From: a virus
IMG/VR virus record: IMGVR_UViG_3300033141_001636
Location: 1 to 26,605 of that record
Length of the DNA: 26,605 nt
Reading direction: 5' to 3' (one strand)
Shown: positions 1,281 through 26,050 of the stretch, piece by piece
Layout of the letters: each line of letters opens with the position of its first letter
Numbering within the stretch: the stretch's first letter is position 1
Position numbers and translations under genes: made by a program
The notes under the pieces: model-generated
The model's input: only the letters and a program-made list of their open reading frames with translations
Database searches by the model: none
Told to the model about the DNA's origin: nothing

Positions 1281-1427
1281 ATGACAAGAGTTAAATCACT
1301 CAAACCAAAAGCAGGTTATCAGCACAGACAACACAGGAAAGTAAGAAAAGTTAAAGATAAAGTGATAGATGTGTATAATTCAATTAAAAAAAAAGATAAA
1401 AAAAGATTAAGAAAAATAAATGTATAG
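1281..1427 (+). CDS. Small basic protein of unknown function (48 aa)
   Basis: A 48-residue reading frame starts 11 bp after the terminase stop and ends 8 bp inside the next gene, as expected of a translationally coupled phage gene. It is extremely basic: about 20 of 48 residues are Lys or Arg, with RVKSLKPKAGYQHRQHRKVR at the N-terminus and a KKKDKKRLRK tail. It has no membrane segment or cysteines. Such composition fits a nucleic-acid-binding or packaging accessory protein, but I recognise no family. It is kept because it fills the gap exactly and its composition is not simply that of the AT-rich background. Confidence 0.5.
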   Translation: MTRVKSLKPKAGYQHRQHRKVRKVKDKVIDVYNSIKKKDKKRLRKINV

Positions 1428-3897
1428 ATACCACGCAATAAAGAGAATAGATATTAATGGCAGAACTTATAATCCCGGAGAGATTATCATCAGTGAAACA
1501 AAAATAGATGGATTAAAAGAAATTGGATCAGAGATAATAATGTCAGTTAATATAAAATCTAAACAAAGAAAATCACAAATAAAAAATACAAAGAAAATAT
1601 ATATAAAGCCAGAGATTAAAGGTAAATTAGCAGATATTATAATACCACACCACAATAGGCACGATCTTTTAAAAAATACATTAGAGGCAATACCATTAGA
1701 TATATTTAATGTTTTTGTTATAGCCGGTGGCAGTTTTGCTCGGAATTGTAATCTGGGCGCAAAGTTAGCAAAGACAGATAATTTGATTTTTATGAACGAT
1801 GACATAGAGCCGGATATAGGCCAGATTATTGAGGCCTGCGAGAATAAAGCAGATTTGGTTGGCTTCTCAGAAGTATTATCAAATGAAGGAAAAAGAATTG
1901 TAAAGGGTATTGGTTGGAGTAGAAATTTATTGTCAAACTTAATGGAAAATCAAAGAGATGTTCAAATACCCTCGGGATTTTTATTTAGAGCAAAAAAGAA
2001 GGCCTGGGAGAAGTTAGGCGGATTTGACGAAACATTTGAGAACGGCGCAGAGGATTTAGATTTAGGATTAAGAGCAAGAGAAATGGGAATGACTATGGAT
2101 TATATTAAAGGAGAACCAATAGTTCATTACCATTCACAATCAGAAGGCAGGTTTAGTAAAGTATTAGAAAATAAAGATTACTTTCAAAAGTTATGGCCAG
2201 ATAAAAGATTAAAAAAGGCATTAGGATTTGACAAGCCAATAAAGAGAGTTCTTTTGGCAAACCAGTTTCTTGAAAACCTTAGTGGAACAGAAACATTTAC
2301 TTATACATTTGGAAAAGAATTAGAGTGCAGAGGATATAAGGTAGATATTTTTACATTTGAACCCGGCCGGTTATCAGAACCATTTTTTACAATAACACCA
2401 AAAAGCGAAAACAAGTTGCGCAAAGAATACGATTATATTTTTATAAATCACAATACCTGTTTGGATTATTTAAAAGACACAAACGGGGTAAAAGTTTTTA
2501 CTTCACACGGGATATATCCAAAGTTAGAACAACCAAAAGAGGGAGCAGATTTTTATGTAGGAATATCAAAAGAAGTTAAGGATTATTTATTAAGCAAAGG
2601 ATTTGACGCAAAGATAATTCATAATGGAATTGATTGTGACAGATTTAAACCAACAAAACCAATACATAAGAAACTAAAAAGCGTTCTTTCAATATGTAAA
2701 GATTTAGACAAAGATTTTAACGACGCTAACGAGAGAATAGAAATAGCTTGTGATAAATTAGGAATAGAATTTAAGAAGGCCAGAGATGTTTGGGATTTAG
2801 AAAAAAGAATGAATGAGGTTGATTTAGTTGTTAGTTTAGGCAGAGGAGCATATGAGGCAATGGCCTGTGGCCGGGCAGTTATAGTATTTGATAAACGGCA
2901 TTATATGAAAGAGAGCAAGGGTGACGGAATAGTAACAGAGGGCAATATCAATGAGATATTAAAAAACAATTTTTCAGGCCGGAGATATAATTTAGATTTG
3001 AGCATTGATGATATTGTTGAGGAATTTAAAAAATATGATAAGTCAATGGGAGAGTTTAATAGACAATACGCATTAGAACATTTTAACATTAAAAAACAAG
3101 TAGATAAGTATTTTGACCTAGCAAACACAAACCGGGACGATAGAGTTTTATTTGTAGGCAGTTCAAAAACAGAATATGGGATAGCAAAGCAATTAGAAAA
3201 GCAGTTGATCAGAAAAGGATTTAAAATAGGATATGGCGGAAAGAGAATTTGTTATGCGAACGATTTAGGAACAATAGATCCAATAGATGGGAGTTTAATA
3301 ATTATAGAGAACCGATCAACATTCAGGAGGGCAATAGAAAGTGGCGCAGATCATATATTTTATAGCCAAAAGAGTTGCGAAGAATACTTTGATCCAGATA
3401 AATCATCTTATTTGCCTTCCGGGATAGATAAGGAAATCTTTAATGATATGAAATTAAAGAGAGAAATAGATATAGGATTTGTTGGAAAGGAAGCATACAC
3501 ATCACGAGTAAAGTTTGTTAAATACTTGAAAGATAAATACGGTGATAGATTTTCAAAACAAGAAGGAATATTTTTTGAGCAAATGGCAGAGTTCTATAAC
3601 AAATGTAAAATAGTGGCAAACCAATCGGCAGGCAATGATATAAATATGAGAATGTTTGAGGCGACAGCTTGTGGTGCATTATTGATAACACAGAAAGTTC
3701 CTTATTTAGACGAGTTGTTTGAGGCCGACAAGGAAATAATAGTTTATTCAACGATGAGAGAAATGATTGAAAAAATAGATTATTATTTAGAACACGATAA
3801 GGAGAGAGAGAAAATTGCCCGGGCCGGGCAGAAAAGAACATTAAAGTATCACACATACCAAGAGAGAGTTAAAGAGATTATAAAATATTTAAAATGA
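1420..3897 (+). CDS. Three-module glycosyltransferase (GT2-like + two GT-B-like)
   Basis: 825 residues. Residues 1-45 resemble a short phage domain (AIKRIDINGRTYNPGE). Residues 68-260 form a GT-A fold family 2 transferase: ADIIIPHHNR start, NDD at 126-128 as the nucleotide-sugar/metal site, and GAEDLDLG at 209-216 as the catalytic acidic motif. Residues 275-598 look like a GT-B enzyme, with HNGIDCDRFKP and YEAMACGRAVIVF. Residues 603-825 are a second GT-B-like unit with IGFVGKEAY and FEATACGALLITQ, as in CgeB/Glyco_trans_1_2 proteins. It overlaps the upstream mini-gene by 8 bp and the downstream transferase by 4 bp. Probable role: glycosylating virion proteins, DNA or host surface; the acceptor is unknown. 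No base-modifying enzyme is visible in the window. Confidence 0.85.
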   Translation: MYRYHAIKRIDINGRTYNPGEIIISETKIDGLKEIGSEIIMSVNIKSKQRKSQIKNTKKIYIKPEIKGKLADIIIPHHNRHDLLKNTLEAIPLDIFNVFVIAGGSFARNCNLGAKLAKTDNLIFMNDDIEPDIGQIIEACENKADLVGFSEVLSNEGKRIVKGIGWSRNLLSNLMENQRDVQIPSGFLFRAKKKAWEKLGGFDETFENGAEDLDLGLRAREMGMTMDYIKGEPIVHYHSQSEGRFSKVLENKDYFQKLWPDKRLKKALGFDKPIKRVLLANQFLENLSGTETFTYTFGKELECRGYKVDIFTFEPGRLSEPFFTITPKSENKLRKEYDYIFINHNTCLDYLKDTNGVKVFTSHGIYPKLEQPKEGADFYVGISKEVKDYLLSKGFDAKIIHNGIDCDRFKPTKPIHKKLKSVLSICKDLDKDFNDANERIEIACDKLGIEFKKARDVWDLEKRMNEVDLVVSLGRGAYEAMACGRAVIVFDKRHYMKESKGDGIVTEGNINEILKNNFSGRRYNLDLSIDDIVEEFKKYDKSMGEFNRQYALEHFNIKKQVDKYFDLANTNRDDRVLFVGSSKTEYGIAKQLEKQLIRKGFKIGYGGKRICYANDLGTIDPIDGSLIIIENRSTFRRAIESGADHIFYSQKSCEEYFDPDKSSYLPSGIDKEIFNDMKLKREIDIGFVGKEAYTSRVKFVKYLKDKYGDRFSKQEGIFFEQMAEFYNKCKIVANQSAGNDINMRMFEATACGALLITQKVPYLDELFEADKEIIVYSTMREMIEKIDYYLEHDKEREKIARAGQKRTLKYHTYQERVKEIIKYLK

Positions 3898-9536: not shown

Positions 9537-10031
9537 ATGAAAAATTTAAAACTAAAAGAAAAAGGTATTTTAAAGAGAAATTGGACTATTGAAAGATTTG
9601 CTTCTCAAAAAGATTTTGAGGCAGGAAATTGCTACAAAAAAAGTGTAGTAAATCATAATTGTCTTGCTAACGAAGGAATAAACGAATTATGGACGCATAT
9701 CTGTTCAGCAGGCGGAGTTAAGTATGACAATACTAACGCTTTTTTAATTACTGGAACAGGATCAGGTGCAGCCGCCGCAGGAGATACAGAAGCCACATTT
9801 ACAGCAGGAGTTAGAAAAGGAATGGAAGCAGGTTATCCAACTTATGGCACAAATCAAAAGGCAACTTGGAGAGCGCTTTATGGAGCAGGAGATGCAAATC
9901 AAGCGTGGCAAGAATTTGGAATGTTAAACGCAGATGGTGGTGGAAAACTACTCAATCGCTTGGTATCAGATCAAGGAACAAAAACTGCGGGACAGGTGTG
10001 GCAACTCACTTTCACAATAACTCTTAGTTAA
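9537..10031 (+). CDS. Probable virion protein of unknown function
   Basis: 164 residues, no membrane segment or signal peptide. The N-terminal part (RNWTIERFASQKDFEAGNCYKK) is charged, then come LANEGINELWTHI and DNTNAFLITGTGSGAAA. This pattern, a short helix followed by a run describing values within a Gly/Ala-rich sheet, is one I associate with phage structural proteins of tail or head-decoration type. The C-terminus QVWQLTFTITLS is a typical edge strand. It lies between the capsid gene and the tail fibre, which supports a virion role. The assignment to a specific structure is open. Confidence 0.5.
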   Translation: MKNLKLKEKGILKRNWTIERFASQKDFEAGNCYKKSVVNHNCLANEGINELWTHICSAGGVKYDNTNAFLITGTGSGAAAAGDTEATFTAGVRKGMEAGYPTYGTNQKATWRALYGAGDANQAWQEFGMLNADGGGKLLNRLVSDQGTKTAGQVWQLTFTITLS

Positions 10032-10043
10032 ACTTATTTAAAA

Positions 10044-10592
10044 ATGAAGAAGCAAGAGTTTATAATTTATCTCGCTGGATTTATTGATGGCGAAGGAAGT
10101 ATTGGTATATCTCGTCGTGATAAAACATATAGAACATTTTGTCATATTACTAATACAAATAAAAAGGTATTAGAGATGATAAAGGAAATGTTAGGATTTG
10201 GATACTTGAAAACCAGAAAGGAAAGTAAAGAACATTTTGGGGAAAAGCAAGTATATGAATTGAATTTTGATAAGAATATAATGACAAGAAAATTATTGAA
10301 ATTGGTTTATCCTTATTTGATAATAAAAAAGATTCAAGCAGAGATTGTCCTGAATTATCCTATCCAAAAACATTTAGCAGATAGAAAAACTGGAAAACAT
10401 CACGGTGGTAGAATAACAGATAAAAAAACTAAAATTGTTCAAGAATGCTTATATAGATATTGTAGAGGATTAAACCAAACCAATCATCAATTTGTTGAGC
10501 CAGAAGAAAGTTACTTAAAATCAGTAAAAGAGATTAAGAATTATAAAGAGTTTAAAAAATTAGTATATGTCAACACCTTTCAAAAAGGTTAA
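10044..10592 (+). CDS. LAGLIDADG-type homing endonuclease
   Basis: 182 residues with one LAGLIDADG helix, YLAGFIDGEGSIGI (residues 9-22), whose Asp/Glu (D16, E18) supply the metal site. Single-motif members act as homodimers and cut long asymmetric sites. The rest is basic (MIKEMLGFGYLKTRKESKEH, KLVYPYLIIKKIQAEIVLNY) as expected of the DNA-binding saddle. No intron or intein surrounds it. It sits free-standing between two virion genes and its last 26 bases overlap the tail fibre start, so it may have inserted precisely at that gene boundary. Its AT-rich codon use differs from the structural genes. Confidence 0.85.
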   Translation: MKKQEFIIYLAGFIDGEGSIGISRRDKTYRTFCHITNTNKKVLEMIKEMLGFGYLKTRKESKEHFGEKQVYELNFDKNIMTRKLLKLVYPYLIIKKIQAEIVLNYPIQKHLADRKTGKHHGGRITDKKTKIVQECLYRYCRGLNQTNHQFVEPEESYLKSVKEIKNYKEFKKLVYVNTFQKG

Positions 10593-13062
10593 AAATAGAG
10601 TTGTAACTACTATAAAAGTTGGTAGTAGTATAAACAACACGGACGATCCTGTAACTTTTAATATTACAGACGCCGCCGCGTTCCCCGTTGCGCCATTTTA
10701 TATTACCGTAGAAGTAATTAATGACGATACGACTTATGAGAGAATGCTTTGTACAGACCTTACAGGTGATCAGATAACAGCGACGAGAGCGCAGGACGGG
10801 TCAAGTAAACAGACATTTAGCGCTGGTGATTTAGTGATGGTAAGAGTTATAGCGGCTCATTTTGACGATATGACAGACGCAGTTAATGATTTAGAGGATA
10901 TAAAAGATTATGTAGATAGTCCTATGATAGTTTCTGGTGGAGAGGTTTCAGAAGGAACAAATGCAGGAACATTTAAAGTTGCTGATTTAACTGCTTTATT
11001 AAGAAAAACAGATAGTTTAACTGGAGAATTGACTTATGTGACACTTTCCGAACAGGATAACCAGACAATTACTGCGGCTGATACGACTTATTTTGTATGT
11101 TTAGATTATAATGGTGGAACGCCTCAAATAGTTCTTTCAGAAACTAATCCTTATGCAAGAACATCTTCGCCAGATAGAACACAAATACCTATTGGAAAAG
11201 TAATGAAAGATGGCTCTGATAATGTTCATTATATTTCTGGTGGATTTAATTTTCAAGATGGAGTTATGAAACTTCATCAAAGAGCTGGTTCGTTAAGAAG
11301 TCACGAATTACAAAGTGGTTCAGCTATTGAATACTCGGGTACAAATAATTTTACAATGGAAGCTGGTGTTTTTTATGCTGGTATAAATAGAATTACAATA
11401 GCACAATATGATAGTGCCTCAACTCAATTTACAGGAGTTAGAGGAGATGGTGGAGCAGGTTGGACAGAAGCCCTTTCAAATGTTATTGATTATGCTCATT
11501 ATGATGATGGAGCTGGTGGATTAGGAAATGTTGCAAATAATAAATATGGTTGTCATTGGGTTTATAGGCATATAGATGATGGACACGTCTATGTCAGATT
11601 AGGTATGGGAAGTTATACATTAGCAGAAGCTGAAGTAGCATTAGAACCAACAAAACCATCTCATTTAACTGATTTTGGAGCTTTAATAGGAAAAATAATA
11701 GCACCTTATAATGGTAGTTCATTTACAGAAGTTCAAATGGTGACAGAAAGATTTTTTACAGGAACAGCTGTTTCTGACCACGGAAATCTTACTGGTTTAG
11801 CAGATGATGACCATACTCAATATGCTTTATTGGCTGGAAGGGCGAGTGGACAAACATTGATAGGGGGAACGGCAAGTGGTGAAGACTTAACACTACAATC
11901 AACCTCAGATGGAACAAAGGGCTATATTTATTTAGGTGCGGCTCAAACCTCTTATTTTGATGAGGTTAATGAAGATTTAATAATCACAGGAGATATAGGA
12001 TCAACTGGCACAAGAGTAAATAAAGGCTGGTTTACTGATTTAGAGGTTACCAATCCGCCTACAATTAATGGCTCTCAAATAAGTTCAGGAGATTTAAGTG
12101 ATACAACCACAGTAGGTGGAAATGTTGTTAGTTTAACCAATCCCTCTGCTGAAACTTTTATAAAAATCGCTGCTGATAATACGGTTTCTACGAGAACACC
12201 TGCTAATGTTATGGCAGATTTATCAGGACACGCTGGTGCTGCTTTTGATTTTAATTCTCAAAATCTTACAAGTGTAGGAACTCTTGGTTGTGGTGCTATA
12301 ACAACAAGTGGAGATTTAGTGTTCAGTTCGGATTTAGTTATAAGACGAGACACTGCTGATGGCTCTGATAATGGTTTATTATCATTAACTGGTGGTGGTG
12401 CTATTAGTTCAACAAGAGGTGCTTATATACTTTTATATGGAAATGAAGCTGGTGGTCACGGACGAATGCGTCTTATAGCTGGAAATGATGCTACTAATGG
12501 AAGTATTGAATTTTCAACACAAGCAACTACAAGATTAGATATTGAATATGGTGGAGATTTTGACTTTCAATCTAATAATCTTAAAAGTATAGGAACATTA
12601 GGTTGTGGGGCGATTACTTCAACTGGAAATATAAAAGCAAATACTTCTAATTATGTTTTAGAGGGTTCAAGTTCAAGAGCAGTTTTAAGGAAAATACAAT
12701 TAGCAATTCTTGACGGAACAAATGCCAATACTCTTAAATGTACAGTTACTTCTAAGTGGAATGGTGATGCAATTAACCAAACTGATAATATAGCAAAAAA
12801 TGCTACAACTGGTAATTTTACTCTTGATGATGGTGGTGATACATTAACAATTGAAGCTGCTGGTTTAACTGGTAATGTTATAATGGCAATGGGATATGTA
12901 AGGTCTAATGCAAGTGAAGTTCCTATTACATTATCAATAGATGCTTTAAGTAATGATATAAGAATTAGAACATTTGACCTTACTGGTTCTGCTGAAGATT
13001 TAACTGCACTTGTTGATACTGGAAATATATATGTAAGTATTTTATATTTAACAAGTGAATAA
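10567..13062 (+). CDS. Tail fibre or receptor-binding protein
   Basis: 831 residues. The N-terminal 110 residues (VTFNITDAAAFPVAPFYITV, ERMLCTDLTGDQITATRAQD, FSAGDLVMVRVIAAHFDD) match the virion-attachment module common in siphovirus fibres. A later segment SDHGNLTGLADDDHTQYALL (near 400) is the collagen-like-fibre hinge signature. After it comes Gly/Thr/Asn-rich beta-strand sequence with internal repeats (LTSVGTLGCGAITTSG and LKSIGTLGCGAITSTG), typical of trimeric beta-helical fibres. A small beta domain closes the protein, and no chaperone domain is seen. It probably recognises the host surface. The attachment module uses GAC/GCG/GCC codons freely, whereas the rest prefers GAT/GCT, which suggests domain exchange. 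Placement between capsid and connector genes is unusual. Confidence 0.8.
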   Translation: MSTPFKKVKNRVVTTIKVGSSINNTDDPVTFNITDAAAFPVAPFYITVEVINDDTTYERMLCTDLTGDQITATRAQDGSSKQTFSAGDLVMVRVIAAHFDDMTDAVNDLEDIKDYVDSPMIVSGGEVSEGTNAGTFKVADLTALLRKTDSLTGELTYVTLSEQDNQTITAADTTYFVCLDYNGGTPQIVLSETNPYARTSSPDRTQIPIGKVMKDGSDNVHYISGGFNFQDGVMKLHQRAGSLRSHELQSGSAIEYSGTNNFTMEAGVFYAGINRITIAQYDSASTQFTGVRGDGGAGWTEALSNVIDYAHYDDGAGGLGNVANNKYGCHWVYRHIDDGHVYVRLGMGSYTLAEAEVALEPTKPSHLTDFGALIGKIIAPYNGSSFTEVQMVTERFFTGTAVSDHGNLTGLADDDHTQYALLAGRASGQTLIGGTASGEDLTLQSTSDGTKGYIYLGAAQTSYFDEVNEDLIITGDIGSTGTRVNKGWFTDLEVTNPPTINGSQISSGDLSDTTTVGGNVVSLTNPSAETFIKIAADNTVSTRTPANVMADLSGHAGAAFDFNSQNLTSVGTLGCGAITTSGDLVFSSDLVIRRDTADGSDNGLLSLTGGGAISSTRGAYILLYGNEAGGHGRMRLIAGNDATNGSIEFSTQATTRLDIEYGGDFDFQSNNLKSIGTLGCGAITSTGNIKANTSNYVLEGSSSRAVLRKIQLAILDGTNANTLKCTVTSKWNGDAINQTDNIAKNATTGNFTLDDGGDTLTIEAAGLTGNVIMAMGYVRSNASEVPITLSIDALSNDIRIRTFDLTGSAEDLTALVDTGNIYVSILYLTSE

Positions 13063-13105: not shown

Positions 13106-13903
13106 ATGTTAGATAGAATATTATTAGACAAAGCGTTATTTGATGGCGATGCGGTTCAAACAAAAACTGTTTCAGATATAGGCACAGGAGTAGATGCAAT
13201 ATATGAACTACTTGCCCAGATAGGATTATCAGACACAGGAAGCGGGGCAGATGCAATTAGCGCTATATTATCACAGTTATCATTAAGTGACACAGGAGTA
13301 GGAGCAGAGGCCATAGACGAGATATTGGGACACATAACAGCATCAGACGCAGGAACAGGTGCAGAAGCGCTTGATATACTGGCACAGATCGCTTTAAGTG
13401 ACACCGGGACGGGAGCAGACGCGCTAAACCTTTTAATAAGTATAGCATTATCAGACACTGGATCAGGAAATGAGGCATTAGATTTATTGGTTGGTATAGC
13501 ATTAAGTGATACTGGAATAGGAAATGATATAGTTAGTTCTTTGGCAATAATAGTAAATCAAAGCGATGCCGGTGTAGGATTAGACGCATTAAATATATTA
13601 GCAAGATTAGTTTTATCTGATACAGGGACAGGAGTTGAAACGGTAGGAGTAAGTAAAGAAATAACTTTATCAGATACCGGAGTAGGAGTTGAGGCCGCGA
13701 ACATATTAGTCAACATAGCATTAAGTGATAGCGGCTTGGCCCAAGAAGCATTAAATATAATAGTAAGATTAAGTTTAAGTGATAGCGGAGTTGGCGCGGA
13801 CGTATTAGAAGTTTTTAAAAAAATAAATCCTTATTGTCCGGGAACGACACCTTATTCAAAAAAAACAAGCCCGTATGATAATATGCCTAACATTTGTAAT
13901 TAA
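13106..13903 (+). CDS. Protein of twelve ~18-residue SDTGxG repeats
   Basis: 265 residues. From about residue 20 to 244 it is built of twelve units of 18-20 residues with consensus LSDTGxGxxALxxLxxIx, for example LSDTGTGADALNLLISIA and LSDTGVGAEAIDEILGHI. Each unit alternates a polar SD(T/S)G turn with an amphipathic hydrophobic helix or strand, as a solenoid would. The DNA copies are diverged, so the repeat is maintained at protein level. The C-terminal 24 residues are different (PYCPGTTPYSKKTSPYDNMP). No signal peptide or membrane segment is seen. Its place right after the fibre suggests a virion-attached spacer or fibre accessory. I do not recognise the family. Confidence 0.6.
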   Translation: MLDRILLDKALFDGDAVQTKTVSDIGTGVDAIYELLAQIGLSDTGSGADAISAILSQLSLSDTGVGAEAIDEILGHITASDAGTGAEALDILAQIALSDTGTGADALNLLISIALSDTGSGNEALDLLVGIALSDTGIGNDIVSSLAIIVNQSDAGVGLDALNILARLVLSDTGTGVETVGVSKEITLSDTGVGVEAANILVNIALSDSGLAQEALNIIVRLSLSDSGVGADVLEVFKKINPYCPGTTPYSKKTSPYDNMPNICN

Positions 13904-13911
13904 ATAATTTT

Positions 13912-14493
13912 ATGAGAGGATATTGCGACAAAAATGATATTGAGCGTTATATGTTGACCACAATAGACCCGTCTTTTAATACTCAAATAAACGAGTGGAT
14001 AGAAAGTGTAGAAACAATGATTGATGATTTTACTGGTAGATTTTTTATTGCTGATACAACTGCTTCAATCAGAACATATGACGGGGACGGAACACACGAA
14101 TTGCTTATTGATGATTGTGTAGAATTAACTAAAATAGAAATAGGAGATCCAACTCTAACAAAAGAGGAATTAGACGAGGACGATTATCACGTCTATCCAT
14201 ACAACGAAACTCCAAAGACAAGAGTTTATTATGACGGGATATTTTCAAGTATTAGAGCAGGAATAGATGTAACGGCCAAATGGGGATATTCAGTTGAAGT
14301 CCCGGCTGATATTAAACTCGCCTCAACAATATTAGTATCTTTAATAATTGAGGAAGCCCACCAATCAGAAGGAGAAACCGAGAGTGAAACAATCGGTAAT
14401 TATTCTGTAACTTATAAAAAAACAGAAGCAAACAAAGGGAAGGTTGCCCGGGCCATTGGGATTTTAAATAGATATAGAAAAATATCAATCTAA
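13912..14493 (+). CDS. Head-tail connector (HK97 gp6 / SPP1 gp15-like)
   Basis: 193 residues. These adaptors form a ring under the portal and receive the stopper. The N-terminus MRGYCDKNDIERYMLTTIDP and the helix QINEWIESVETMIDDFTGRF match the start of the gp6-like family. A central beta part (HELLIDDCVELTKIEIGD, DYHVYPYNETPKTRVYYD) and the TAKWGYSVEVPADIKLASTI motif before the last helices are also typical. The C-terminus (NYSVTYKKTEANKGKVARAI) with IGILNRYRK is the usual ending. The stop codon overlaps the next start (TAATG). Confidence 0.85.
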   Translation: MRGYCDKNDIERYMLTTIDPSFNTQINEWIESVETMIDDFTGRFFIADTTASIRTYDGDGTHELLIDDCVELTKIEIGDPTLTKEELDEDDYHVYPYNETPKTRVYYDGIFSSIRAGIDVTAKWGYSVEVPADIKLASTILVSLIIEEAHQSEGETESETIGNYSVTYKKTEANKGKVARAIGILNRYRKISI

Positions 14494-15191: not shown

Positions 15192-15245
15192 ATGGCATTA
15201 AAAGGTAAAAAATTAACCGAGGAACATAAACGGAAAATAAGTAAA
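15192..15245 (+). repeat. 54 bp direct repeat, copy A (5' end of HNH gene 1)
   Basis: The first 48 bases of this HNH gene match those of the HNH gene at 17743 with no differences, and 53 of the first 54 match. Similarity then drops sharply. Identity this high at synonymous positions is not needed for protein function and suggests recent common origin or exchange. Confidence 0.9.
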
Positions 15246-15914
15246 TCACTCAAAGGAAGGCATTTACTACCACAACAAGGTTTTCAAAAAGGACATAAAG
15301 TTTCAAAGGAAGTAAGAAAAAAAGTCAGTAAAGCACATAAAGGAAAGCCAAGTTGGAATAAAGGATTACCGAAAGAAAAGCATTGGAATTTCGGGAAACA
15401 TCTTTCTAATAAAACAAAGAAAAAGATAAGTAAAGCTCATAAGGGAATTAAACTTTCAAAAGAACATAGAAAACATTTAAGTGAAGCAAAAAAGGGGTGT
15501 AAAGTTTCTCATTCGCAAGAAACGAGGAGAAAAATAAGTAAAGCAAATAAAGGTAGGAAATTATCAAAAAAATGGAGACAGAAAATAGGAAAAGCAAATA
15601 AAGGAAAACTCAAAGGAAAAAATCATCCTAATTGGAAAGGTGGATATGAAAATAAATTATGGCATAATAGGCAGAGGAGAATTAAAAAATTAGAAGCGGA
15701 AGGTTCACATACACAGGGTGAATGGGAATTACTTAAAAAGCAATATGGCTATATGTGTCCTTGTTGTAGGAAGAAAGAACCTAAAATTAAACTCACAGAA
15801 GACCATATAATCCCATTAAGTAGGGGCGGTTCAGATTATATTGAAAACATCCAACCATTATGCTCACATTGTAATTTTGTTAAGCATATAAAAATAATTA
15901 AGTATAAAAGATGA
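15192..15914 (+). CDS. NUMOD3-HNH homing endonuclease, copy 1
   Basis: 240 residues. The N-terminal 150 residues hold several NUMOD3 DNA-binding repeats of the form LS.EHRKKISKAHKG (for example [32 protein letters not shown]). A zinc-binding HNH nuclease domain sits at about 185-237: CPCC, then EDHIIPLSRGGSDYIENIQP, then LCSHCN. Such free-standing genes spread by cutting alleles that lack them. It starts one base after the gp10-like stop and ends in an ATGA overlap with the tail terminator, so it sits cleanly between two essential genes. Its first 54 bases are almost identical to the second HNH gene at 17743. Confidence 0.9.
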   Translation: MALKGKKLTEEHKRKISKSLKGRHLLPQQGFQKGHKVSKEVRKKVSKAHKGKPSWNKGLPKEKHWNFGKHLSNKTKKKISKAHKGIKLSKEHRKHLSEAKKGCKVSHSQETRRKISKANKGRKLSKKWRQKIGKANKGKLKGKNHPNWKGGYENKLWHNRQRRIKKLEAEGSHTQGEWELLKKQYGYMCPCCRKKEPKIKLTEDHIIPLSRGGSDYIENIQPLCSHCNFVKHIKIIKYKR

Positions 15915-17742: not shown

Positions 17743-17796
17743 ATGGCATTAAAAGGTAAAAAATTAACCGAGGAACATAAACGGAAAATAGGTAAA
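17743..17796 (+). repeat. 54 bp direct repeat, copy B (5' end of HNH gene 2)
   Basis: Partner of the repeat at 15192-15245, with one mismatch (base 49). The two genes start at the same first base of the repeat and diverge straight after it, so the shared tract could be the crossover point for module swaps. Confidence 0.9.
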
Positions 17797-18348
17797 GCCA
17801 ATAAAGGCAAAAAACTAACAGAAAAACATAAACAAAAATTAAGAGAAGCAACCTTAAAAAATCCAACAAGATATTGGTTAGGGAAAAAACGAATACCATT
17901 ATTAGAAGAAACAAAAGAAAAAATAAGAAAAAAATTAAAAGGAAATACTCACGGATTTCAAAAAGGGAAACATACTTCTCTTAAGACAGAATTCAAGAAA
18001 GGACAAATACCTTGGAATAAAAATAGAAAAGGAAAACAAATACCTTGGAATAAAGGATTAAAAGGATTTAGAGCAGGAGAAAAATGTCATTTTTGGAAAG
18101 GCGGAATTACTCCAATAAATGCTAAGATTAGAAATTCACTTGAAATGAAATTATGGCGTGAAGCAGTATTTGAAAGAGATAATTATACTTGTAGATTTTG
18201 TGGAAAGAGAGGTGGTAATTTAGAAGCAGACCATATAAAACCATTTGCTCAATACCCCGAATTAAGATTTGCGATTGATAATGGTAGAACTCTTTGTAAA
18301 GAATGCCACAAAAAAACAGATAGTTATCTAAATAGATGGACTAATTAA
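17743..18348 (+). CDS. NUMOD3-HNH homing endonuclease, copy 2
   Basis: 201 residues. NUMOD3-type repeats ([50 protein letters not shown]) precede an HNH domain at about 148-195: [30 protein letters not shown]. The two HNH genes are different enzymes that share the first 16-18 codons nearly exactly at DNA level. It lies between the tail tube and the tail chaperone, again at a boundary between essential genes. Confidence 0.9.
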
Positions 18349-24591: not shown

Positions 24592-25242
24592 ATGGAAACG
24601 GAAAATAAAATTAAAAATTTTAGATGGAGATTAAAATCTATTGGAAGTATTTCTCATCACGATTCACAATGGAAAGAGATTTTTATTAAAAATGGTTTTA
24701 AATGGGAAGATTGGTGGGAAGGATATTGTAGTGGAATGTGTAATTTGACTGGAAGTTTTAGCGATGATAAAAGATATAAAAAAGGAATAATGAGTTTTCC
24801 ATCAATTTTTGGATTAAAAGGAGAAAATTTATTTATTAAATGGCTTTATACGGGGAAAAGAAAATTTTTAATACCTTTTTATAATTGGTTTGTTGCTTAT
24901 ATAAATAAACAAAAAAAAATATCAGATAAAGAAGAAAGAGAATGTAGGGAAAAATCTAAAAAAATTAATAATAAAAAAATTGAAAATGGTTGGATTTATC
25001 TTTTAAAAAGTAAAAATCTTTATAAGATAGGACGGGCAAAAAATATTCAAAGTAGAATTAAAACTTATAAGACAGAAAATCCTTTTGGAATAAAAATTAT
25101 AATTCAAAAAAAAGTAAATGATTATATTGGAATAGAAATAAAATTATTAAAAATGTTTAATGAAAAACAAATAAGAGGAGAATGGTTTAAATTGAATAAA
25201 GATGATATTAATAGAATTAAAAAATATTTAAATGAAATATAA
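24592..25242 (+). CDS. GIY-YIG (T5orf172/MUG113-type) endonuclease
   Basis: 216 residues. The C-terminal 85 residues form a GIY-YIG nuclease: GWIYLLKSKNLYKIGRAKNI supplies the WIY...YKIG pair and the Arg follows in QSRIKTY. The likely catalytic Glu is in GIEIKLLKMF, and RGEWFKLNKDDI is the typical ending. The N-terminal 125 residues (HHDSQWKEIFIKNGFKWEDW, GYCSGMCNLTGSF) are unfamiliar and may bind DNA. The gene is noticeably more AT-rich than the structural genes, which fits a mobile endonuclease. It sits between the putative RNA and the replication gene, overlapping the latter by 11 bp. Confidence 0.8.
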   Translation: METENKIKNFRWRLKSIGSISHHDSQWKEIFIKNGFKWEDWWEGYCSGMCNLTGSFSDDKRYKKGIMSFPSIFGLKGENLFIKWLYTGKRKFLIPFYNWFVAYINKQKKISDKEERECREKSKKINNKKIENGWIYLLKSKNLYKIGRAKNIQSRIKTYKTENPFGIKIIIQKKVNDYIGIEIKLLKMFNEKQIRGEWFKLNKDDINRIKKYLNEI

Positions 25243-26050
25243 TATTAACATAAATCAATTAGTTTTATCAAAAACAAATCTTGATTTAATAGATTGTGCT
25301 ATTATTGATTATATTTATTATTATTGTAATAGCAAAAATGAAAAAATAGAAAGCCAAAGAATTAAGAATGAAAAAGGTATTTGGACTTGGATAAACTATC
25401 AAACACTTTTAGGGGATATGCCATTGATCAAAATTAAGAGTTCAGGTGCTTTAACTCCAAGAATAAAAAAAATTGAACAAGAGGGTTATATTGAAACTTT
25501 TAGACAAGGAAATCAAAAACTATTCATTAAATTGAATAGTAAAATTGACGAGCTATTCATAGAAACAAACAGAGCTGTTCACGAAAATGAACAGAGCTGT
25601 TCACCAGAACGAACGAATAATAATACTATAAATAATTATACTAAAAATATAGAGTATATTTTTGAATATTGGAATAAACAAAAAATAATAGTTCATTCTA
25701 AATTGACTGATAAAATAAAAACAAAGATTAAATCAGCATTAAAAGATTATAAAAAGGATCAGATATTTTTGGCCATAAGAAAATATAAAATGGTATTAGC
25801 TGGCCCGGAATATTTTTGGACATATCAATGGTCTTTGGATAAATTTTTACATCGTGGATTAACAGACTTTGTAGATAGCCCGATTGATAAGTGGAAAAAA
25901 TCAAACGGATTTGAAAAACCAAAGAAGCGCAAAGTTTATTTTAATGGAGATCCAGTTGTAAAAAAGAACGGCAAGCAATGGGTAATTCAAAATGGAGATT
26001 GGCGAGAGTTTGTCGGTGACGAAAAAGAATTAGTTATTAAATTTGAATAA
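25232..26050 (+). CDS. Phage replication initiator, lambda O-like architecture
   Basis: 272 residues. The N-terminal ~105 residues look like a winged helix-turn-helix initiator domain (NLDLIDCAIIDYIYYYCNSK, IWTWINYQTLLGDMPLIKIK, SSGALTPRIKKIEQEGYIET). An Asn-rich linker (PERTNNNTINNYTKN) leads to a helical C-terminal part, YIFEYWNKQKIIVHSKLTDK and EYFWTYQWSLDKFLHRGLTD, common in phage replication proteins that recruit helicase or its loader. Direct repeats with a 22 bp period lie within the DNA coding the linker, as with lambda O and its origin. Basic segments follow (KPKKRKVYFNG). The helicase loader or helicase itself should be outside the window. Confidence 0.7.
   Translation: MKYNININQLVLSKTNLDLIDCAIIDYIYYYCNSKNEKIESQRIKNEKGIWTWINYQTLLGDMPLIKIKSSGALTPRIKKIEQEGYIETFRQGNQKLFIKLNSKIDELFIETNRAVHENEQSCSPERTNNNTINNYTKNIEYIFEYWNKQKIIVHSKLTDKIKTKIKSALKDYKKDQIFLAIRKYKMVLAGPEYFWTYQWSLDKFLHRGLTDFVDSPIDKWKKSNGFEKPKKRKVYFNGDPVVKKNGKQWVIQNGDWREFVGDEKELVIKFE
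25548..25613 (+). repeat. Three 22 bp iteron-like repeats (candidate origin)
   Basis: Units begin at 25548, 25570 and 25592, exactly 22 bp apart. Units 2 and 3 share AACAGAGCTGTTCAC without mismatch (25568-25582 and 25590-25604). Unit 1 is degenerate (GAGCTATTCA). Unit 3 is centred on a 16 bp inverted repeat, TGAACAG-AG-CTGTTCA. Very AT-rich DNA follows (about 25612-25700), suitable for melting. All lie inside the replication initiator gene. Confidence 0.55.

What the first reader, a model, noticed from the sequence alone, without database searches (positions are those of the whole stretch)
13106..13903. Unrecognised solenoid-like protein of twelve 18-residue SDTGxG repeats
A whole gene built of one motif, highly regular in protein but diverged in DNA, which implies selection on the repeat. 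The SDTGxGxD turn recalls, but does not match, calcium-binding RTX nonapeptides. Its place between a fibre and the connector suggests a virion role. Repeat number could vary between strains.
Basis: partly seen in the sequence, partly recalled or inferred. Interest (0 to 1): 0.6.

Follow-up and report, generated by a model that had tools for sequence, protein, structure and literature searches.

The report
Extendable repeat protein of phage fibres
This is a protein built of twelve copies of a short unit, found in many unrelated bacterial viruses beside their attachment-fibre genes, and it most likely forms the adjustable-length shaft or spacer of a virus fibre.

Summary
Observation confirmed: window 13106-13903 encodes 265 aa, of which about 220 are twelve SDTGxG units spaced 18 or 19 residues. 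The repeat is invisible at DNA level, with codon choice as in independent draws. No Pfam or NCBIfam model passes its cut-off. Direct orthologues carry 15-21 units; one differs from a near-identical virus by a 111-bp tandem duplication. The gene typically ends a fibre cluster. A partner gene (window 9537-10031) accompanies the repeat in unrelated viruses; 36 of 79 partner-centred loci carry the repeat, against 0 of 132 arbitrary viral loci. The partner's confident model has a fibre adaptor/collar-like fold. Best reading: an extendable, probably oligomeric, beta-rich fibre shaft or spacer. Not shown: the fold (AlphaFold2 monomer pLDDT 40), presence in virions, metal binding, or whether the fibre sits on head or tail. 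Membership in RTX and Toastrack families was tested and not met.

The parts
13106..13903 (+). repeat protein gene (REP), 265 aa, predicted pI 4.05, predicted charge about -26 at pH 7
13106..13171 (+). N-terminal cap, residues 1-22 (MLDRI..DK..FDG), conserved in direct orthologues
   Evidence: alignment of 7 sequences
13172..13831 (+). array of twelve units, residues 23-242: S-D-T-G-x-G-x-[DE]-x-hydrophobic-x-hydrophobic...
13832..13900 (+). C-terminal tail, residues 243-265, short PY-containing repeats (YC..TTPYSKKTSPY...); PYxK-type tails also in more distant relatives just before the adaptor gene
9537..10031 (+). partner gene (phrog_23653, unknown function), predicted tail-fibre adaptor/collar-like fold; co-occurs with REP in unrelated viruses
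10567..13062 (+). tail-fibre-like protein, 831 aa (phrog_8469 E 8.1e-9, phrog_30299 E 8.6e-7)
13912..14493 (+). head-tail adaptor (phrog_442 E 1.5e-19), the gene directly downstream

Best explanation
REP is a structural component of a virion fibre. The 18-residue unit is a beta-strand-plus-turn module: even positions D2, G4, G6, D/E8 and hydrophobic 10, 12, 16, 18 alternate with small or polar residues. Tandem copies build a shaft or spacer whose length changes by gain and loss of units. A partner protein with an adaptor/collar-like fold (window 9537-10031) would anchor or organise the fibre set, with the 831-aa fibre protein as a neighbouring component. The shaft probably needs several chains (I would guess three) to fold. 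Shown: the repeat, its conservation, the copy-number differences, the fibre-cluster position, the link to the partner, the partner's predicted fold. Inferred: virion incorporation, oligomerisation, length control of reach, and whether the fibre stands on tail or head.
For: Gene order MCP, partner, fibre, REP, adaptor is kept in close relatives (L250-L252, L105) and in the more distant L255. Partner present in 45 of 80 repeat loci against 4 of 39 non-repeat loci of one scan, and those 4 are weak-repeat loci. Conversely 36 of 79 partner-centred loci (18 of 33 at least 14 kb long) carry the repeat; 0 of 132 arbitrary viral loci carry either. Among neighbours, 116 downstream proteins give head-tail adaptor (9), scaffold, major head and terminase as the recurrent named families; 52 upstream proteins give tail fibre, tail spike, minor tail and baseplate, one or two members each. 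Partner model pLDDT 92.9; best PDB match a 953-residue chain of the HFTV1 tail (Foldseek E 1.4e-5; VIA-align Z 10.3, rmsd 4.7 over 133), then phage GP4 fibre-tail adaptor (Z 6.6) and phiKZ gp139 (Z 5.8); BFVD matches include named tail fibre and collar proteins. In myophages SP-15 and LIS04 the partner follows the baseplate J and tail protein I region. Madraxi's partner homologue is annotated minor tail protein. One relative fuses the array to a ConA-like lectin domain (L379, E 2.2e-14). Strand periodicity: hydrophobic moment peaks at 180 degrees over 538 units of other phages, and at 150 degrees or more in 53 of 72 distinct families.
Against: No confident structure; the low-confidence model is helical, not beta. 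16 of 72 families peak at 120 degrees or less; the window's own units, taken with the 19-residue ones, peak at 95 degrees. Weak sub-threshold matches of relatives are to helical repeats (Adaptin_N E 1.7e-6 in L018, TPR). 43 of 79 partner-centred loci show no repeat; 0 of 6 mycobacteriophage repeat loci (L006-L011) show the partner in the flanks fetched. Foldseek's only significant PDB match for the partner is one chain, and Z 5-7 may be a common arrangement. No virion proteomics is available for this virus.
Confidence: 0.6

Rival explanations
1. REP is a capsid (head) fibre or decoration, analogous to phi29 gp8.5, whose trimeric stem is a supercoil of repeating helix-turn-helix motifs; it stands on the head, not the tail.
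For: The gene lies between major head protein and head-tail adaptor. [quoted passage not shown] PMC7602432, passages). 16 of 72 repeat families have helix-like periodicity, and the low-confidence model is helix plus turn.
Against: Only 22 residues precede the array, too short for the ~110-residue base of gp8.5. Most families, and the window's 18-residue units, show strand periodicity. In Madraxi the gene follows minor-tail genes and precedes the terminase.
Confidence: 0.2
2. REP is an autonomous single-chain beta-solenoid: one coil of 18 residues with a calcium-binding RTX-like turn (TGxGxD-x-hydrophobic) on one side only, folding when Ca2+ is met outside the cell.
For: Unit length equals two RTX nonapeptides; G4-x-G6-x-[DE]8-x-hydrophobic10 matches the recalled RTX half-motif GGxGxDxUx; acidic at position 8 in 253 of 280 units chosen without regard to it; protein strongly acidic.
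Against: Pfam lists no RTX model among hits up to E 1 for the window or E 10 for eight relatives. E is common at position 8 (150 of 538). Single-chain prediction failed.
Confidence: 0.15
3. REP is a flexible, largely disordered spacer or an assembly factor (chaperone) for the fibre rather than a shaft.
For: pLDDT 40 throughout; last gene of the fibre cluster, where fibre chaperones often lie (recalled).
Against: Strict conservation of D2, G4, G6, D/E8 and alternating hydrophobics across unrelated families; relatives fuse the array to lectin and propeller domains.
Confidence: 0.05

Closest known systems
Minor tail proteins of mycobacteriophages (e.g. phiT45-1 gp23) and Rhodococcus phages REQ1 Orf64, Madraxi gp8
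   Same: Arrays of [DE]TGxGxD-type units about 18 residues apart, mostly in tail/fibre regions
   Different: There the array is joined to glycine-rich or other N- or C-terminal domains; the window protein is almost only array; identity 25-33%. In REQ1 the gene follows a lysin gene, not a fibre
Toastrack domain DUF4097 (PF13349)
   Same: DTGSG turn repeated every 18-21 residues; found by the same DNA pattern in bacterial genomes
   Different: Hydrophobic profile anti-correlated (r = -0.58), position 8 is V/I, never acidic, in 85 units; G15 in 94%; window has no Pfam DUF4097 hit up to E 1
RTX calcium-binding repeats
   Same: GxGx[DE]x-hydrophobic in half of each unit (recalled motif)
   Different: Period 18, second half lacks the motif, no Pfam match
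phi29 head fibre gp8.5
   Same: Repetitive fibre encoded in the head region
   Different: No base domain; periodicity mostly strand-like; no sequence match in the PDB
Phage fibre adaptor/collar proteins (HFTV1 tail chain 9h4p_BD, GP4 fibre-tail adaptor 8jou, phiKZ gp139)
   Same: Predicted fold of the partner protein
   Different: No sequence match in the PDB; this concerns the partner, not REP

Membership tests
RTX (hemolysin-type calcium-binding) repeats | Tandem nonapeptides GGxGxDxUx (motif recalled) | tested here: not met
   Period 18/19 with one G-x-G-x-[DE] per unit; no such Pfam hit listed up to E 1 or E 10 in eight relatives
RTX (hemolysin-type calcium-binding) repeats | Calcium binding | not testable with these tools
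   Only conserved acidic positions were seen
Toastrack DUF4097 | Match to PF13349 | tested here: not met
   Not among window hits up to E 1; the three bacterial proteins checked do match
Toastrack DUF4097 | Core pattern: hydrophobic at 8, 10, 13, 17 and G15 | tested here: not met
   Phage pattern is acidic at 8, hydrophobic at 10, 12, 16, 18
phi29-type head fibre | N-terminal beta-barrel base domain (about 110 residues) that binds the capsid | tested here: not met
   22 residues before the first unit
phi29-type head fibre | Trimeric helix-turn-helix supercoil | not testable with these tools
   Single-chain model without confidence
Phage fibre module component | Encoded in a fibre/tail gene cluster | tested here: met
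Phage fibre module component | Present in the virion as an oligomer | not testable with these tools
   needs proteomics or structure
Fibre adaptor/collar fold (partner protein) | Fold similarity to a solved fibre-anchoring protein | tested here: inconclusive
   Foldseek prob 1.00 to an HFTV1 tail chain, Z 10.3, 6.6 and 5.8; which HFTV1 protein that chain is was not established

The most novel reading that the evidence does not exclude
An unnamed, phage-wide 18-residue beta repeat (DxGxGx[DE] followed by alternating hydrophobics) forms the length-adjustable shaft of a distinct class of virion fibres that come with their own adaptor-fold partner; fibre length evolves by tandem gain and loss of units, and the fold is a new intertwined, possibly metal-bound, multi-chain architecture.
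Probability: 0.35. Interest if true: 0.65.

Novelty: new variant of a known kind. Interest (0 to 1): 0.5.

Why it matters
Repetitive fibre shafts decide how far a phage can reach, yet many environmental phages have fibres that no family model describes. A repeat and partner pair found together in many unrelated viruses gives a marker for finding fibre modules, a possible new shaft fold to solve, and a system in which fibre length may differ by whole units between near-identical viruses, so that reach and adsorption can be compared directly.

Tried and rejected
Structure prediction of REP from a 10-sequence alignment failed (pLDDT 40); no fold search was run on it because a low-confidence model gives meaningless matches. 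Profile and single-sequence searches of the PDB with REP or relatives gave nothing significant. Plasmids: no match. PADLOC hits are weak (E 0.002-0.009) and were rejected as compositional. Weak Pfam matches to TPR, ELMO_ARM, Adaptin_N, DUF7673 are all under their cut-offs and were taken as compositional. Homology to Toastrack, suggested by a pairwise BLASTP E of 1e-7, was rejected because the cores are out of phase. An N-terminal FD-type tag was tested: 6 of 35 short-capped genes against 28 of 479 control ORFs; a mild excess, not used. Literature searches for the motif, for 18-residue repeats and for repeat variation in phage tail proteins found no description (search listings only); only openly licensed papers are held. 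The bacterial-genome scan was not used as evidence of spread: 30 of its loci were Toastrack-like by spacing and many others had 6- or 9-residue periods.

Full report
Observation. ORF 13106-13903 (+) encodes 265 aa. Twelve units of SDTGxGx[DE] type follow each other at 18 or 19 residues; no shuffle of 20,000 comes near. The DNA shows no tandem repeat at score 40, and codons at shared residues agree no more often (44% of 496) than codon usage predicts (42-48%): an old array held together by selection on the protein. Pfam and NCBIfam have no passing model; PHROG 1696 ('major tail protein') matches at 3.8e-6 here and at 7e-18 in a relative.

Genome and neighbourhood. The window is an IMG/VR virus record of 26,605 bases. 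Named genes run terminase, portal, head protease, major head protein, partner (9537), LAGLIDADG endonuclease, fibre, REP, head-tail adaptor, HK97-gp10-like, tail tube, tape measure, peptidase.

Relatives. tblastn finds 23 phage records (20 Mycobacterium, 3 Rhodococcus). Eleven of the loci are direct orthologues (7 distinct proteins) sharing the N-terminal cap and/or the PYC...SPY tail; the six full-length distinct ones are 58-68% identical to the window protein. Their unit counts are 15, 15, 16, 16, 19 and 21, against 12 in the window. L105 differs from L064 by one extra 37-residue (two-unit) copy, seen in DNA as a 111-bp tandem repeat. An assembly artefact cannot be excluded.

The unit. In 538 distinct 18-residue units of other phages (selected for D2, G4, G/A6, D/E8) the remaining positions alternate: hydrophobic at 10, 12, 16 and 18 (56-77%), small or polar between; the hydrophobic moment peaks at 180 degrees. 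By family, 53 of 72 peak at 150 degrees or more and 16 at 120 or less; the window's 18-residue units and its orthologues peak at 180, though including its 19-residue units gave 95. Position 8 is acidic in 253 of 280 units selected without regard to it. AlphaFold2 on a 10-sequence alignment gives pLDDT 40, low-confidence helices. I read this as a beta-rich unit that does not fold as one chain; the second half is inference.

Architecture elsewhere. Of 97 distinct repeat genes, 35 have at most 60 residues before the array and 51 have more than 150; short-period C-terminal tails are common among the short-capped ones (by eye). Of 17 large proteins scanned, one (L379) carries a ConA-like lectin domain, and two copies of one protein (L050 and L353, same contig) carry NHL propeller repeats. 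PF13385 rings somewhere in 12 of 50 records, not always in the repeat gene.

The partner. A blast of the window's genes against repeat loci showed that the gene 9537-10031 recurs in many viruses sharing no other detected gene with the window. With an HMM: 45 of 80 repeat loci and 4 of 39 others of the same scan (Fisher p 1e-6); the four others are weak-repeat loci and many repeat loci are short fragments. The two genes are on one strand in every locus where both were seen, mostly with the partner upstream, in some downstream. From the partner's side, 36 of 79 loci, and 18 of 33 of at least 14 kb, carry three or more units; of 132 loci drawn by arbitrary DNA patterns (1.14 Mb) none carries either. 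The partner family is common (at least 526 relatives in a capped scan), so it is not exclusive to the repeat. Mycobacteriophage repeat loci lack it in the flanks fetched (0 of 6).

Partner fold. Model pLDDT 92.9. Best PDB match: a chain of the Haloferax virus HFTV1 tail (E 1.4e-5; residues 376-508, Z 10.3); next GP4 fibre-tail adaptor, phiKZ gp139 and a Bas63 connector chain (Z 6.6, 5.8, 5.3). BFVD matches include tail fibre and collar proteins, also from archaeal viruses. In the HFTV1 paper (PMC12494034; outline, passages and one section read) the baseplate hub anchors three tail fibres; I did not establish which protein chain BD is.

Position. Among 116 downstream proteins the most frequent named families are head-tail adaptor (9), scaffold, major head and terminase; among 52 upstream, tail fibre, spike, minor tail and baseplate, one or two members each. 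So REP typically closes the fibre cluster before the head module resumes.

Mechanism. Shown: repeat, conservation, copy-number differences, cluster position, association with an adaptor-fold partner. Inferred: REP forms an oligomeric shaft or spacer; units set its length; the partner anchors or organises the fibres. Head or tail placement is open: the gene stands in the head region, as phi29's head-fibre gene does (PMC6542822 and PMC7602432, passages; also passages of PMC12796354, and PMC10172136, on capsid fibres), but lacks a base domain.

Comparison. The nearest named 18-residue DTGSG repeat is Toastrack DUF4097, which the same pattern picks up in bacteria; its core is out of phase with the phage unit (r = -0.58), so I take it as analogous. 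RTX shares half a unit only. No description of the phage repeat was found (search listings only).

Noticed in passing
window 10044-10592: LAGLIDADG endonuclease gene between the partner and the fibre gene; relatives L250-L252 and L105 show partner and fibre adjacent without it, so it looks like a recent insertion.
   Followed up: partly
window 15192-15914 and 17743-18348: Two further homing-type endonucleases (NUMOD3/HNH; HNH) in the head-tail region; the second is 87% identical to one at the same place in L249/L130, absent from the match list of L252.
   Followed up: partly
window 1420-3897: An 825-aa protein with a glycosyltransferase-like C-terminus (phrog_2170, E 7.7e-7) between terminase and portal, an odd place for such a gene.
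   Followed up: no
window 25550-25614: About 2.5 copies of a 22-bp direct repeat inside ORF 25232-26050, which has a weak replication-initiation match; iteron-like.
   Followed up: no
L105:7380-7639: 111-bp tandem duplication (two repeat units) in an otherwise near-identical orthologue of L064; contig L259 ends within the same repeat region.
   Followed up: partly
L244, L236, L213 and about 27 other bacterial loci: Toastrack DUF4097 proteins share the DTGSG turn at an 18-residue period with the phage repeat but with a different core pattern.
   Followed up: partly
C-termini of many repeat genes, e.g. L049, L118, L257, L347: Short-period (about 7-12 residue) repeats follow the 18-residue array in otherwise unrelated families; possibly a second anchoring module.
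   Followed up: partly
Viral contigs: The partner family (phrog_23653-like) is very common, at least 526 relatives in a capped scan, yet has no assigned function in PHROGs, Pfam or NCBIfam.
   Followed up: partly
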